Virus record (IMG/VR): IMGVR_UViG_3300048672_000060
Span: 1-37,969 of that record
Length of the DNA: 37,969 nt
Strand: one strand, 5' to 3'
DNA from: a virus
Shown: one piece after another, positions 9,316 through 32,043 of the stretch
How positions within the stretch are numbered: position 1 is the stretch's first letter
Layout: every line of letters begins with the position of its first letter
Notes under the pieces: generated by a model
What the model saw: only the letters and a program-made list of their open reading frames with translations
What the model was told of the DNA's origin: nothing
The model's database searches: none
Program-made: the position numbers and the translations under genes

Positions 9316-10398
9316 ATGTTAGAAGTATTTAACTCAAACAATAAAGGGTATGTCACAGGTAAGTACCCACTGTTCTTAGGCGATAAGTTAGGATTGTATG
9401 ACTCAGTTAATGTCGTCTATCCAGACATCGAGGAGCTATACCAACAGCAATTTGGTCAGCGCTGGAGTGAGTTCGAGTATGACTTAACTCAAGATAAAAT
9501 GGATATGCTGAAGCTACCTAAAGAAACCACAGCGTTGATGGTTGAGACTATCATGTGGCAATACACAGCAGACAGTATTGCTGCTAAATCGTTAAGCGAA
9601 CTGTTGTTACCTCATATCACCAATAGTGAATTTGAAGCAATGGTGACTATCCAAAGCTTTTTTGAGATTATACACAGTCGAACATACGCGCATATTGTTA
9701 AACAGACAATTCCTAATGCTAATGAGTTATTGGAAAAGACTTATGCTAGTGTTGAAGTAATTAAACGTTCTCAAGTGATCGGTGAAGCATTTAGTTCCTT
9801 GTCTAAACTGACCAAAGATAGTTCACGTAAAGATAAGATGAAAGCTCTATTAAAAGTGATGTTTGCTTTAATGGCCTTTGAAGGTATAAACTTCATGTCG
9901 TCATTTGCTGTTACTTTTGCTATAGTAGAGACTGGGGTGTTTCAAGGGATCTCTGGATTGGTAGGTTTAATCTGTTTTGATGAGCTTCTTCACGCTAAAA
10001 TGGATTACACAGTAATTAAAAACTTACTGAAAGACCCCGAATGGTATGATGTGTTTGTTGAGATTAAGCCAGAAATTAACACTATTATGGATGAAGTAAT
10101 CCAACAGGAATTTAAGTGGACAGAACATTTATTTAGCGAAGGTCGGAGAGTGGTAGGTCTTAGTCCTGTGCTATTACGAGAGTTTGTTGTATATATGGCA
10201 ACGCCGTTATATAAGAGTTTTGGCTTGTCGTTAAAAGAAGGTATTAGTTTTGTCGATAAAAACCCATTACCTTATATGAACAAGTATCTGAAGTCAGGTG
10301 TAATTCAAGTGGCGGCACAAGAAGTTCAGTTAAGTGATTACAATGTTGGTAATATTGTGGACGATACTGATAATCTAGACTTATCTTTTGAGGTGTGA
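9316..10398 (+). CDS. nrdB: Class Ia ribonucleoside-diphosphate reductase, beta subunit
   Basis: 360 aa, normal size. It holds the diiron-tyrosyl radical that activates NrdA. The ligand set reads D86 (YTADS), E117 and H120 with the radical tyrosine Y124 in FFEIIHSRTYAHI, E189 (AFEGINF), then E223 and H226 (FDELLH). The presence of Y124 indicates class Ia rather than Ic. The acidic tail ending DLSFEV matches the C-terminal peptide that docks on the alpha subunit. Start ATG 9316 follows TTTGGAG; an out-of-frame ATG at 9312 is ignored. The stop lies directly in front of a homing endonuclease gene. Confidence 0.95.
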   Translation: MLEVFNSNNKGYVTGKYPLFLGDKLGLYDSVNVVYPDIEELYQQQFGQRWSEFEYDLTQDKMDMLKLPKETTALMVETIMWQYTADSIAAKSLSELLLPHITNSEFEAMVTIQSFFEIIHSRTYAHIVKQTIPNANELLEKTYASVEVIKRSQVIGEAFSSLSKLTKDSSRKDKMKALLKVMFALMAFEGINFMSSFAVTFAIVETGVFQGISGLVGLICFDELLHAKMDYTVIKNLLKDPEWYDVFVEIKPEINTIMDEVIQQEFKWTEHLFSEGRRVVGLSPVLLREFVVYMATPLYKSFGLSLKEGISFVDKNPLPYMNKYLKSGVIQVAAQEVQLSDYNVGNIVDDTDNLDLSFEV

Positions 10399-10399
10399 T

Positions 10400-11071
10400 T
10401 TGGGAAAATTAATTGACAGGTCAGGTGAGAGATACGGAAGATTAGTTGTCTTAGAAAAAGACACTCCGTATATTTCCCCAAAAGGTAGATATATTGTACG
10501 TTGGAAGTGCTTGTGTGATTGTGGAAACGTATGTGTAATAAACGTGGATAACCTGAGGAAAGGTAATACGAAATCATGTGGTTGCTTGAATCTGGAAAGA
10601 TTAACCACCCACGGGATGTCAGATACGCCAACTTATTGCGTATGGGAGTCTATGAAGTTTAGGTGTAGTAACCCGAATCATAAAAGTTACGCGGATTACA
10701 CTAAAGTGGGCTATGACCCTTTGTGGAACGACTTTTCAAATTTCCTACAAGACATGGGAGAAAGACCTGAAGGTCATACACTAGATAGAATTGACGGCAC
10801 AAAGGGGTATAGTAAAGAAAACTGTAGGTGGGTTAAGCAGGACATACAAATGCACAATCGCAGTATCGATCATTCTACTGAGTATGCAGGTGTCCATTAC
10901 TATAAAGCAACAGGTAAATATCAAGCCTATATAACTAGATATGGAGTGAAGCACCATCTAGGCTACTTTGACACTCCCGAAGAAGCTGCTGGAGCGAGAG
11001 ATAGTAAAGCGAGGGAACTATATGGGGAACAAGCAACACTCAACTTCAGCAACTGTCAGCCCTCCTCGTGA
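10400..11071 (+). CDS. Free-standing HNH homing endonuclease with AP2 DNA-binding domain
   Basis: 223 aa. Residues ~35-62 hold a zinc-binding element (KCLCDCGN...SCGC). About 78-135 is the HNH region with CSNPNHKSY, LDRIDGTKGYSKENCRW. Residues ~152-207 are an AP2/ERF-like DNA-binding domain (AGVHYYKATGKYQAYI...HHLGYFDTPEEAA). This is the architecture of phage mobile HNH-AP2 endonucleases. TTG 10400 is chosen as start because GAGG at 10390-10393 sits six bases upstream, inside the end of nrdB. The last codons and the stop (11069-11071) lie inside a terminator hairpin, so the natural AP2 end (TLNF) is extended by NCQPSS. It probably inserted between nrdB and a pre-existing terminator. Confidence 0.85.
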   Translation: MGKLIDRSGERYGRLVVLEKDTPYISPKGRYIVRWKCLCDCGNVCVINVDNLRKGNTKSCGCLNLERLTTHGMSDTPTYCVWESMKFRCSNPNHKSYADYTKVGYDPLWNDFSNFLQDMGERPEGHTLDRIDGTKGYSKENCRWVKQDIQMHNRSIDHSTEYAGVHYYKATGKYQAYITRYGVKHHLGYFDTPEEAAGARDSKARELYGEQATLNFSNCQPSS

Positions 11072-17159: not shown

Positions 17160-17573
17160 TTATTTACTTCCTATGTTTGTTAATAGTTTTGTTAGTCGTC
17201 CGATAGAAGCAAGAGGCGCTACACGATTGAGTAGTTCTTGCGTATCAAACGGTTTTAGTACGAAGTCTAATGCTCCGCACATAAACGCCTTACAACGATT
17301 ATCGTCAGTACCTTCTGCTGTAATAAATACAGTAGGTGTGTGTCGAGTGATTTCTTCTTCACGTAGTTCTTCTGACAATTCATACCCAGTGTAACCATTA
17401 TCGAGATGGATGTCAAGGACAATTACATCAGGATTAAACTCTTTAGCTTTAGATATAGCTTCATGGTGCCCATAGACGGGTAGTGTTTCATACCCGCCTT
17501 TATCGAACACATCTGTCAAATACGACAACATGAAAGCATCATCTTCAACGATCATTATGCGAGGATTTGTCAT
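17160..17573 (-). CDS. Stand-alone response-regulator receiver (CheY-like)
   Basis: 137 aa from ATG 17573, after GGAG; the open frame extends seven codons further without a better site. All receiver landmarks are present: acidic pocket D11-D12 (IVEDDAF), phospho-acceptor D54 (VIVLDIHLD), switch threonine T85 (VFITAEG) and K107 (LKPFD). There is no output domain: the sequence ends ~15 residues after the last receiver helix. It overlaps the membrane coiled-coil gene by 29 bp and precedes the proline-rich peptide by one base, so it is co-transcribed with the lysis cassette. A phosphorylatable receiver in a phage lysis operon is unusual. Its kinase or target is not visible in the window. Confidence 0.88.
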   Translation of the reverse strand: MTNPRIMIVEDDAFMLSYLTDVFDKGGYETLPVYGHHEAISKAKEFNPDVIVLDIHLDNGYTGYELSEELREEEITRHTPTVFITAEGTDDNRCKAFMCGALDFVLKPFDTQELLNRVAPLASIGRLTKLLTNIGSK

Positions 17574-17853
17574 TTGACATACTCCACTTTGCATTAAGTA
17601 CCGCTAAATCCCTAGTGAGCTGGTTTAATGTTGCATTCATTTCTCGTGTCATCACTAACACTTCTTTTTGATCTTCACGTACTGGATCTACAGCTTTAGT
17701 AATAGCCTTTTCCATATCTTCAAAGGTTGGTGTCCTAGCTTGTTTAGACACGATAGCTTCAAGAACTTTATCATTCCGTTGTTTATCGTACCAGTACCAA
17801 GCTATTAATCCAGTCCAGCCCCACTTCAGTAAGGCGAATAATTCTATATTCAC
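17545..17853 (-). CDS. Membrane-anchored coiled-coil protein
   Basis: 102 aa starting with GTG 17853, which overlaps the stop of the peptidase fragment (GTGA). There is one N-terminal hydrophobic helix with Trp-rich edges (about residues 4-21, ELFALLKWGWTGLIAWYWYD), then a charged linker and a coiled coil at about 60-92 (VLVMTREMNATLNQLTRDLA). The layout resembles single-TM holin-like or i-spanin-like proteins, but Rz is found elsewhere. Overlap with the receiver gene makes it a possible membrane partner of that protein, which is an inference from context. Confidence 0.65.
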   Translation of the reverse strand: MNIELFALLKWGWTGLIAWYWYDKQRNDKVLEAIVSKQARTPTFEDMEKAITKAVDPVREDQKEVLVMTREMNATLNQLTRDLAVLNAKWSMSNDKSSHNDR

Positions 17854-28372: not shown

Positions 28373-29007
28373 GGATTACCTCCCGCATCTGTTGGAGATT
28401 TTCCAGCAAAACTATCATAAAAATTATTTAAAGCTTCAGGTATGCTTGCACCAGAATCAACAGCTCTTACCAAAAACGCTTTAATTGTCTTTCCGCCGTT
28501 AGTTGTCGAAGAAGCTGCGTCTTTTTTATTAGCTACAACATTGCTCGTTTTTACTAAATTAATACTCTCAGTGGATGCTGTTCTAATTTGAACAACTTGC
28601 ATATCAAAATACAAGCTGTTACTAGATTCAGCACTTACTGGAAGATTCAACGACTCAACTACACAATCATAGTACGTCTCATACTTACTGACCAGAGTAA
28701 ATGTAAGACGCTCATCACGTAACCTACGTAAGAACTTATATGCTTGTTGAATACGATCTAATCCACGAGACAGTGTGTCAGCTTGATAATCATTCAATCC
28801 GTACTGGCCAAAGATACCAGACACTGTGAAGCGATTGTTCTTCAGTTGAATATGATCACTAAACGATACGCCAGTTTCTACAGGATGCTCAGTTACTGTG
28901 TTGGAGAAGTCGTGAGAAATACTCACGGTACAATCCGCAAAATATTTCTCACCCGCAATCTCACTCACGCCAGCTTTAAATTTATTAGCGACGATGAATG
29001 TAATCAT
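28369..29007 (-). CDS. Dit-like distal tail / baseplate protein
   Basis: 212 aa. The N-terminal domain reads VSISHDFSNTVTEHPVETGV then SFSDHIQLKNNRFTVSG, the usual Dit-like pattern in contractile phages (orthogonal beta barrel around the tube end). QQAYKFLRRLRDERLTFTLV and the YYDCVVESLNLPVSAESSNS strand follow. The C-terminal ~60 residues are a low-complexity and helical tail. It directly follows the tape measure gene, the conserved place. Confidence 0.8.
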   Translation of the reverse strand: MITFIVANKFKAGVSEIAGEKYFADCTVSISHDFSNTVTEHPVETGVSFSDHIQLKNNRFTVSGIFGQYGLNDYQADTLSRGLDRIQQAYKFLRRLRDERLTFTLVSKYETYYDCVVESLNLPVSAESSNSLYFDMQVVQIRTASTESINLVKTSNVVANKKDAASSTTNGGKTIKAFLVRAVDSGASIPEALNNFYDSFAGKSPTDAGGNP

Positions 29008-29925
29008 TATTGTGCTGTCTCCATCTGAGTAACTGCATTTTTCGGTGCCGCGGTAGCAGTGATTGCTTTACCAAATTGACTGTCATCAACTTTAATATCA
29101 ATAAACCATCCCAGAGGGGAGTATTGAGAATAACCTTTATATAGGTTTTCGAATGCTGCTGACGGACTACTCAGTGCACCGCTACCTTTGGTTAAACTAA
29201 TGGCTCTACCTGTCATCGTGTCAGCCTTATCTCCGTATGTAGCATATAACGCCAAGTCTTCAATGACTGCATACGCAGCAATGATCGGAGCAAATCGGGC
29301 AGCCATAGCTAACAATGCTGAGTTAACAGCCCAAACGGCTTTGGATACAAAGCTGAATCTTGTAGCCATCAGTGCAAGTACACCACCAGCACCAACTAAA
29401 GACCAAATACCGCCACTACCATCTAAGATACCTAAACGTTCTAAGTTATCACCTAAAGAGTCAAATAACGCCACCATTCCACGGAAAGGTATTAACGCCA
29501 CTTTTATCCCTGCTGTAATTGTTGTAACAGCGCCACGGAAAGCCGCACCGAATGCTTCGGCTAATGGGGCAAGTTCTTGGAGTAGGTCAGCTAAAGAGCC
29601 GAACATATATCCTAAACCTTCGTCCATACCCCCTCGGAAGATTGTATCTTTAGCTTCTGTTAATGTATTGAAGAATCGACCCATCTGAGCACGAGTCTTA
29701 TTCATTACAGCATCTAACGCACCGCCCTCACGTGCCATCTTCTTCATTTCTTCAGCAAACTTAGGCAAAACATCTTTAGATTTTAATTTACCAGCCTCTA
29801 CAGCTTTAAAGAAATCTTGCATGTTTGTATAACCAGCAGCTCGCATCATAGCGTCTACACTGCCGCCCAAGGCCTCACCCAACTGGCCAGTAAGTTCTTC
29901 CTTATAGAGCTGACCTTTTGATGCC
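29007..29925 (-). CDS. Tape measure protein, exon 2 (C-terminal part)
   Basis: Second exon of the gene whose first exon ends at 30812. Joining T(30812) to G(29925) restores the frame as LQQ-M-ASKGQLYKEELTGQ, matching the conserved 'QMxSKGxVxxEELxGQLGE' stretch of phage tape measures. The exon encodes ~306 residues, with hydrophobic segments (GGIWSLVGAGGVLALMATRF, AMAARFAPIIAAYAV) that may act in the host membrane during DNA entry. Unspliced, the frame upstream of 29925 meets a stop (TAG at 29943-29941) in the intron. The spliced protein is 716 aa. Confidence 0.88.
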
Positions 29926-30082
29926 CACTTATGTTCAAACTAATTCGCTATATTAGTTCCGCATCATTACATGCAGCTATATGTTTCCATATAGATCAGA
30001 CTATATCTTCACCCTAATACTAGGGGTTCCACATTTCCACTCGCTTGAGTGTACGCCTTTCGGCTAGTCGTTGAACACAATA

Positions 30083-30655
30083 TCAATATAAGCAAGTTAT
30101 GTGTGACCAAGTACAACGGTATCTTATTTTAGATACTTGTTTCAATGTCAAACCTAATTGCTTAGCTACCTCACTACACGACGGCGGAATAGAATCTTTA
30201 TAGTCTACAAAGTATATTTTACAGACTGCGTGGACTTGTTCTTCCGTCATTTTACACATACCATGTTTCGTCCCTTTCAGTGTAGGGATTAACTTATCAC
30301 CAAACGCCGCTTTAATGTTTTCGGAGTTTGTTCCCCATTTAAGGTTGGTATAGTGGTTATTAATCTTGTTGTTATCTATGTGCATCACTACTACAGTATC
30401 AGATTTATAACTTTCTGTTTCATATTTCAGATGTTCTGGTCGTTCAACAAATAACTCTGCCACGACCTTATGCACTTTCCTAGAAAACTTTTTGTTATTC
30501 TTTTGATACTGAAAATAATAATATCCGCACTTATTTAACCTAGTGTACCACCGTTGACCTGTTCTACTATTAATCAAGTAACCGTCACGATGTACCAGAA
30601 TCTTTGGATATTCTGGGTAAGGTAGTATTTCGATATTTTGCTGCTGATTGTCCAT
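30083..30655 (-). CDS. Intron-encoded HNH homing endonuclease
   Basis: 190 aa. The HNH core has VHKVVAELFVERPEH (H62), then VVVMHIDNNKINNHYTNLKW (H92 with the N...N helix), and GTNSENIKAA, the usual phage homing HNH layout. An N-terminal NUMOD4-like strand region (YPKILVHRDGYLINSRTGQR) precedes it. A C-terminal helix-turn-helix (CSEVAKQLGLTLKQVSKIRY, 150-169) would recognise DNA. It would cut intronless tape-measure alleles and spread the intron. It lies in the intron between the P4-P6 core and the R element. ATG 30655 follows AAAGGAG by six bases, inside a regulatory hairpin. Confidence 0.9.
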   Translation of the reverse strand: MDNQQQNIEILPYPEYPKILVHRDGYLINSRTGQRWYTRLNKCGYYYFQYQKNNKKFSRKVHKVVAELFVERPEHLKYETESYKSDTVVVMHIDNNKINNHYTNLKWGTNSENIKAAFGDKLIPTLKGTKHGMCKMTEEQVHAVCKIYFVDYKDSIPPSCSEVAKQLGLTLKQVSKIRYRCTWSHITCLY

Positions 30656-30661
30656 TTCACT

Positions 30662-30681
30662 CTCCTTTATATTAAAAGGAG
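30662..30681 (-). promoter_or_regulatory. Hairpin that sequesters the HNH ribosome-binding site
   Basis: On the minus strand CTCCTTT (30681-30675), loop TAATAT, AAAGGAG (30668-30662): a perfect 7-bp stem in which the right arm is the Shine-Dalgarno of the intron HNH gene. In long tape-measure transcripts the site would be masked. Confidence 0.75.
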
Positions 30682-30682
30682 G

Positions 30683-30710
30683 ATCATACCATAGCTTTTC
30701 AAACTGTCAA
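30683..30710 (-). promoter_or_regulatory. Promoter inside the intron for the HNH gene
   Basis: On the minus strand, TTGACA (30710-30705), a 16-bp spacer and TATGAT (30688-30683; five of six consensus bases). The expected start point, 6-8 nt on (~30677-30675), falls at the end of the left hairpin arm. RNA from this promoter would lack most of that arm and leave the ribosome-binding site open. Confidence 0.7.
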
Positions 30711-30811
30711 GCTTGTCGTTACCGACTACTTTGTAGTGTATGGTCTTTAGGAGTTTCCAGCAATTAATGGAATTGTTTTCTACACATTACTGTGTAGGCA
30801 GACAACATTCT

Positions 30812-32043
30812 ATCTGCTGTAGCGCACGTAATGCGCGTTGGTAATCTTCTTTACTTGTACCCAGCACCTGAGCATATTCAGAAACACCAGTAAACAAACT
30901 ACGTTGTTGGTCTTTGGTCATTGTAGTTTTAGTGGCAATACTAAATTTAGTGAACTCTTTAGTAGCTAACTGTAAATCTACACCTAAACGCATTGCTTCA
31001 TCACGAATAAACTTCATGTGGTCGGCAACACCTGCTTCATCTTTAGCAAATACTTTAGCTGAAGCTCGTAGCCCTTCCATTTCGAACCCCGTCTGAGCAA
31101 TGTTTTGGATGGCGCTAAATGCAGTATATGCAGCAGTTAATTGCACTAGTTCACTACGTAAAGAAGCAAATGTAATAGCATTAGCCCGTAATGCACGTTG
31201 CTGTGTTAACAGAGCATTGGTAGCCATGTTCAAGTCTTTCTTGAAACCTTCCAAGTCCGTGATGTTAGCTCCAGTATACATCTTACGAGATTGAGCAGCT
31301 TGTTCACGTATCTTAGTTAATCCAGCTTCGATTTGCTCAGATTTTAAACCAAACCTTTCTGCGTAGTTTCTGAATTGACCTTCCTTGCGTTGTACGTGGA
31401 AGTCTGCACGAATACCGAAAGCCTCTTGTGCTGAAGATGCTCTACTGATCGCAGCAGCCTCTTTTGCTTTACGTTTAGCTCTTGCAGCATTTTGTTTAGC
31501 GCGTTGATTTAATAAACGCTCTCTACGTCTATCATATTCTGATGCAGCTTTCTCACTTGCGGCTTCTTCTTCACGCATTAACTGAGCATAATATGTTTTG
31601 TTTGCTGCTGATGTAATAGCTAGAGTAGGAAACAAATGAGACAAGCGTTCAGTTAGGTTGGCTTTACCGTTAGCCGTTCTGATAGCTTTCTGAGATTGTT
31701 TAGCCATCTCATTCTGAATCTTCTCTTGAGCTTTTAATTCCGTTTGCCAGAACTTAACATATCCTTTAGGATCACCGCCAACACTACCGAAAGTCATTAG
31801 CTTATGTTTCTTAGCTACTTCAGCTCGTACTCTCGCAACTTTCTTTTCAGCATTAACTGTAGCATTAGCTACTTTGTTTATATTGTTTATTGTGGCTTGG
31901 ACTTTGATTGCTTTGTCCAAACCACCAAGTTGTTTCTTAACCGAAGTTAATTTGTTTTGAAATAAGGCTAGATTGTCCCATGAACGTTTGTCGATATTAA
32001 ATCGGATCTTACCTACGACCGACCCAGTAATGTTATCTGCCAT
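30812..32043 (-). CDS. Tape measure protein, exon 1 (N-terminal part)
   Basis: Encodes residues 1-410 of the spliced 716-aa tape measure, which sets tail length and is ejected with DNA. It is mostly long charged helices (SEYDRRRERL-type, AKQNAARAKRKAKEAAAISR). It ends with DYQRALRALQQ, where typical tape measures continue QMASKG. Read without splicing, the frame adds IECCLPTQ and stops in the intron P2 loop (TAA), giving a 418-aa truncated product. ATG 32043 has AGGAG upstream, overlapping the stop of the chaperone frameshift extension. Confidence 0.88.

What the first reader, a model, noticed from the sequence alone, without database searches (positions are those of the whole stretch)
29926..30811. 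Tape-measure gene split by a group IA intron with base-exact splice sites
Two reading frames that look like separate genes (30787-32043 and 29007-29882) are exons of one tape measure. P1 (exon GCAGAU with intron GUCUGC, U-G at the site), P10 (AUGUU with exon GGCAU), the R and S elements with P7 GACUA/UAGUC, P7.1/P7.2 and a P9 GAAA hairpin all fit. Joining 30812 to 29925 restores QMASKG at the exact place expected in tape measures. Known phage introns sit mostly in DNA-metabolism, polymerase, terminase or lysin genes. A structural tail-length gene would tie virion assembly to RNA splicing.
Basis: partly seen in the sequence, partly recalled or inferred. Interest (0 to 1): 0.87.

Follow-up and report, generated by a model that had tools for sequence, protein, structure and literature searches.

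The report
Mobile intron in phage tape-measure gene
A phage gene that sets tail length is cut in two by an RNA element that very probably splices itself out and carries its own DNA-cutting enzyme; this is a new example of something already shown in the cholera phage ICP1, and such introns land again and again in the same short stretch of this gene.

Summary
An 886-nt group I intron (30811..29926, minus strand) splits a tape-measure protein (TMP) gene. Joining 30812 to 29925 gives a 716-aa TMP that aligns without a gap across the junction to intronless homologues, and this pair is the best of 100,000 tested. Every expected helix pairs, with compensatory changes in related introns.

The novelty claim does not hold. 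TMP introns, spliced by RNA-seq and RT-PCR, are published for Vibrio phage ICP1, and introns are known in the Twort tail-tube gene and mycobacteriophage capsid and tail genes. Deposited Pseudomonas phages already carry TMPs annotated in two pieces around an HNH gene.

What I add: 19 group I introns in 12 TMP genes occupy six sites within about 64 nt of one motif (QMxSKG...EELxGQL), leaving internal exons as short as 8 and 11 nt. The window's site A is shared by four phages. The HEG has a sigma70-like promoter and a hairpin hiding its ribosome-binding site, conserved in seven related introns. That is the known T4 td/I-TevI arrangement. Splicing in this phage is inferred; there are no RNA data.

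The parts
30812..32043 (-). TMP exon 1 (codons 1-410 and two bases of M411)
29926..30811 (-). group I intron, 886 nt, insertion site A
   Evidence: same site in L003 and L091
29007..29925 (-). TMP exon 2
30812..30817 (-). P1 exon side GCAGAU (U-G wobble at splice site)
   Evidence: the guide sequence changes with the exon at other sites
30798..30803 (-). P1 internal guide GUCUGC
30804..30808 (-). P10 AUGUU, pairs with exon 2 GGCAU (29925-29921)
30780..30797 (-). P2 hairpin CUACACA-GUAA-UGUGUAG
   Evidence: compensatory changes
30758..30762 (-). P4 5' strand UGCUG; its 3' strand CAGCA is at 30646-30642, inside HEG codons 4-5
30683..30710 (-). sigma70-like promoter TTGACA-N16-TATGAT for the HEG
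   Evidence: top score; same elements in related introns
30662..30681 (-). hairpin CUCCUUU/AAAGGAG that hides the Shine-Dalgarno sequence
30083..30655 (-). HNH homing endonuclease ORF, 190 aa
   Evidence: phrog_59 E 2.8e-28; I-HmuI 1U3E E 6.5e-4
30632..30637 (-). P6 5' strand AAUAUC inside HEG codons 7-8; 3' strand GAUAUU at 30084-30079 overlaps the HEG stop
   Evidence: six bp or more in 4 of 5 introns, 4 bp in the fifth, with different sequences
30065..30069 (-). P7 5' strand GACUA
29999..30003 (-). P7 3' strand UAGUC
30012..30025 (-). P8 hairpin CCCUA/UAGGG
29977..29994 (-). P9 hairpin CUAUAUG-GAAA-CAUAUAG

Best explanation
A mobile group I intron of the phage IA type sits in the tape-measure gene of an uncultured phage related to Rheinheimera barbaviruses. 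The intron RNA folds, cuts itself out of the late TMP transcript, and joins codon 411 (AU|G) to give a full-length TMP. It carries an HNH endonuclease of the I-HmuI kind, which most likely cuts intronless TMP genes at this conserved motif and so copies the intron into them. The endonuclease start codon and first codons lie inside the ribozyme core (P5, P4, P6). In the long TMP transcript its ribosome-binding site is locked in a hairpin, so ribosomes do not disturb folding. A sigma70-like promoter just upstream would start transcripts inside the hairpin and free the site. Shown here: exon and intron anatomy, splice sites, pairing with covariation, intronless and intron-bearing homologues. Inferred: splicing, endonuclease activity, promoter use.
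For: Exact join is the best of 100,000. RF00028 E 4.5e-9. All helices pair, with compensatory changes across five introns. Intronless TMPs are continuous at the site: Barba18A, and L024/L025, which come from the same metagenome as intron-bearing L003. Same intron and site in L003 and L091, and an ORF-less intron at the same site in J2-1. HEG family match. The HEG-side hairpin covaries in seven introns (0 of 500 shuffles reach its score). A DNA polymerase intron in phage CB7 with the same 5' cassette (74% DNA identity) was shown to splice by RT-PCR (PMC7344957). ICP1 TMP introns splice (PMC10448857). The RBS-hairpin plus promoter logic is published for T4 I-TevI (PMC2988022).
Against: No RNA data exist for this phage. 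Each half alone is below Rfam's gathering score. The -35 box lies in sequence that is also conserved as RNA, so its conservation is weak evidence for a promoter. No I-TevI-like operator was found. Endonuclease activity and target are untested.
Confidence: 0.94

Rival explanations
1. The gene is split but not spliced: two TMP polypeptides are made and assemble, as reported for the Aeromonas phage Aeh1 nrdA split by mobE.
For: Such a case is known (described in PMC7344957), and both pieces are long ORFs.
Against: Exon 2 alone would start at a TTG 43 nt inside the exon and lose the conserved SKGQLYKEELTGQL motif. A complete, covarying ribozyme with exact sites is present. L003 has two introns around a 33-nt exon, which cannot encode a separate protein.
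Confidence: 0.03
2. A dead intron or a frame-breaking insertion in a decaying gene.
For: The Rfam hits are below the curated cut-off.
Against: All helices are intact with compensatory change, the HNH ORF is intact with its HNH motif, TMP exons are conserved with L003 and Barba18A, and the same intron sits at the same base in other phages.
Confidence: 0.03
3. Splicing is a regulatory switch for tail assembly and not only a neutral exit for a selfish element. This is an addition to the main explanation, not an alternative to the intron.
For: Introns recur in this gene and motif in many phages.
Against: Close relatives have no intron (L024, L025, Barba18A), and homing into a conserved target explains the recurrence.
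Confidence: 0.06

Closest known systems
Vibrio phage ICP1 TMP introns with hdgA (PMC10448857; PMC9040626)
   Same: HNH-bearing group I introns in a TMP, within the same motif; splicing shown by RNA-seq and RT-PCR
   Different: ICP1 has three introns, by my mapping at codons 419/420, 422 and 427/428, and none at the window's codon 411 site
Pseudomonas phage ZCPS13 and six other Pseudomonas phages with the same match; TMP annotated in two pieces in ZCPS13
   Same: 5' ribozyme half 82% identical, same promoter and hairpin, HNH ORF starting MDNQQQN
   Different: in ZCPS13 inserted at codon 419/420, eight codons downstream
Pectobacterium phage CB7 DNA polymerase intron with CB7_50 (PMC7344957)
   Same: same 5' cassette; spliced by RT-PCR
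   Different: host gene is DNA polymerase
T4 td intron and I-TevI (PMC2988022)
   Same: HEG ribosome site hidden in read-through RNA and freed by an internal promoter; ORF overlaps ribozyme core
   Different: T4 uses a late promoter and a GIY-YIG enzyme and has a known operator; here sigma70-like, HNH, no operator seen
Twort orf142 (tail tube) and Cluster J mycobacteriophage capsid/tail introns
   Same: self-splicing introns in virion structural genes
   Different: other genes and hosts

Membership tests
group I intron | conserved core P3-P9 with P4, P6, P7 | tested here: met
group I intron | P1 with U-G at the 5' site, terminal G at the 3' site, P10 | tested here: met
group I intron | interrupts a gene whose homologues are continuous | tested here: met
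group I intron | Rfam RF00028 gathering score of 50 bits (a curation threshold, not a defining chemical feature) | tested here: not met
   42 and 20 bits for the two halves, split by a 573-nt ORF; E 4.5e-9 and 0.015
group I intron | guanosine-dependent self-splicing | not testable with these tools
   needs RNA
subgroup IA | extra helices P7.1 and P7.2 between P7 and P3 | tested here: met
   paired in five introns; subgroup-specific models were not available
mobile (homing) intron | encodes a homing endonuclease | tested here: met
mobile (homing) intron | endonuclease cuts the intronless allele | not testable with these tools
   needs purified protein and DNA
T4-type RBS-hairpin control of an intron HEG | ribosome site in a hairpin; promoter placed so that the start falls inside the hairpin | tested here: met
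   by sequence only; transcription start not mapped
intein | intervening sequence in frame with the host protein | tested here: not met
   in-frame stop at 30789-30787, and 886 nt is not a multiple of 3

The most novel reading that the evidence does not exclude
The QMxSKG...EELxGQL stretch of myophage tape measures is an intron landing zone. At least 19 group I introns at six positions within about 64 nt were found in 12 TMP genes from phages of several hosts. Up to three stack in one gene with internal exons of 8 to 39 nt, and one intron lineage with a portable HEG promoter-hairpin cassette has moved between neighbouring sites and into or out of DNA polymerase genes.
Probability: 0.75. Interest if true: 0.55.

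Novelty: new member of a known kind. Interest (0 to 1): 0.42.

Why it matters
It corrects annotation: TMP genes in such phages are called as two or three unrelated ORFs. It also widens a case known from ICP1 to a recurrent target, where group I introns stack with exons as short as 8 nt. That makes it possible to test how ribozymes share such tiny exons, why homing elements choose this motif, and whether an intron-borne endonuclease helps one phage against intronless rivals.

Tried and rejected
Exact-word TMP search of viral contigs with the joined protein found nothing; an alignment query did. A search for an I-TevI-like operator between homing site and promoter gave 12 of 20 matches, equal to shuffles, so I make no autorepression claim. 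L041 carries the cassette in the same TMP stretch, but its exact join stayed unresolved, so it is not counted. Promoter-like sites in the region are no more frequent than in shuffles (41 against 41.8), so the promoter rests on its score, its place and its presence in related introns. An intein and ribosomal bypass were rejected: the insert is out of frame with stops, and a full ribozyme is present.

Full report
What is there. On the minus strand of this 38-kb virus contig lie phage tail genes in the order major head protein, tail sheath, a virion structural protein, tail chaperone, tape measure (TMP), Dit-like protein, baseplate hub. The TMP appears as two ORFs. Joining base 30812 to base 29925 removes 886 nt and gives one 716-aa protein. 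In a scan of 100,000 possible joins scored only against intronless relatives (L025 and Barba18A), this join is first (244; the next two, which shift the boundary by one or two bases, score 236), and it is the only good one with U before the intron and G at its end. The joined protein aligns without a gap at the junction to Barba18A (Rheinheimera phage) and to L003.

The intron. RF00028 matches both halves (E 4.5e-9 and 0.015). They fall below the gathering score because a 190-aa ORF splits the core. P1, P2, P3, P4, P6, P7, P7.1, P7.2, P8, P9 and P9.2 were checked in the window intron and four relatives; the helices are kept, most with different letters on both sides (P2 was not listed for ZCPS13, P1 is 4 bp in L018, and P3 of L026 was read by eye). 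P10 was checked in the window and L003. At other insertion sites the internal guide changes with the exon: GCAGAU/GUCUGC here, GGCAGU/GCUGCC in L026. P6 is formed by HEG codons 7-8 and bases at the HEG stop; its sequence differs in each relative yet stays complementary.

The endonuclease. The ORF at 30655-30083 matches HNH endonucleases (phrog_59, E 2.8e-28) and the solved I-HmuI of phage SPO1 (1U3E, E 6.5e-4; the name I-HmuI and its phage are from my own knowledge). Its start codon lies 156 nt into the intron, and its first codons (MDNQQ) are the P5/P4 strand of the ribozyme. The same M(D/G)NQQ start appears in other HEGs in this setting, including LAGLIDADG-like ones. Upstream lies TTGACA-N16-TATGAT, the top-scoring promoter-like site of the region, followed at once by a hairpin that pairs the Shine-Dalgarno sequence. 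The hairpin folds in all seven introns tested and covaries beyond shuffles and slid controls on the covariation score and paired cells. Its position predicts that RNAs starting at this promoter lack most of the 5' arm. T4 I-TevI is controlled this way (PMC2988022). Whether it operates here is inference.

Relatives. L003 carries the same intron (897 nt, HEG 64% identical) at the same base, plus a second ORF-less intron 33 nt further on. L091 carries the first intron too. L024 and L025, from the same metagenome as L003, have no intron. In the phage collection, ICP1, Vibrio 193E37-1, Aeromonas phiA019/PhAER-4, Pseudoalteromonas J2-1, Pseudaeromonas KLEP7 and Pseudomonas ZCPS13 also have interrupted TMPs with RF00028 hits. 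Mapping joins in 12 genes gives 19 introns at six sites: codon 411 phase 2, 419/420, 422 phase 2, 426 phase 1, 427/428 and 432/433 (window numbering). Every join restores the same motif. Internal exons are 8, 11, 16, 19, 25, 33 and 39 nt long. These joins are predictions; for ICP1 the published count (four exons, three introns, HEG in the middle one) agrees with mine. Found loci are biased towards the conserved TMP domain, so introns elsewhere in TMPs could be missed.

Known or new. TMP introns are published for ICP1, with RNA evidence (PMC10448857), and the authors call the TMP frequently interrupted. A DNA polymerase intron with this same 5' cassette splices in phage CB7 (PMC7344957). So this is a new member, at a site for which I found no report in the held library, which lacks most subscription papers. 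The clustering of six sites and the very short exons go beyond what I found described.

Noticed in passing
L010 (KLEP7) 1834-2134: An unannotated group I intron (86.7 bits) seems to split the start of the tail tube gene.
   Followed up: partly
L009 (Pseudoalteromonas phage J2-1) 3240-5000: Three predicted introns in the TMP, the first at the window's exact site; exon 4 is annotated as an unrelated hypothetical protein.
   Followed up: yes
L016 (Aeromonas phage PhAER-4) about 1361-2790: Two introns flank an 11-nt exon TAAAGGCCAGT in the TMP.
   Followed up: yes
L075, L081 and other loci: LAGLIDADG-like ORFs begin at the same ribozyme ATG (MDNQQ), so unrelated HEGs seem to have captured one start codon in the ribozyme core.
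   Followed up: partly
window 10388-11071 (+): A 227-aa ORF overlapping the end of nrdB has no Pfam match; by eye it resembles a free-standing homing endonuclease.
   Followed up: no
window 17160-17594 (-): A response-regulator receiver domain (Pfam E 1.7e-23), unusual in a phage.
   Followed up: no
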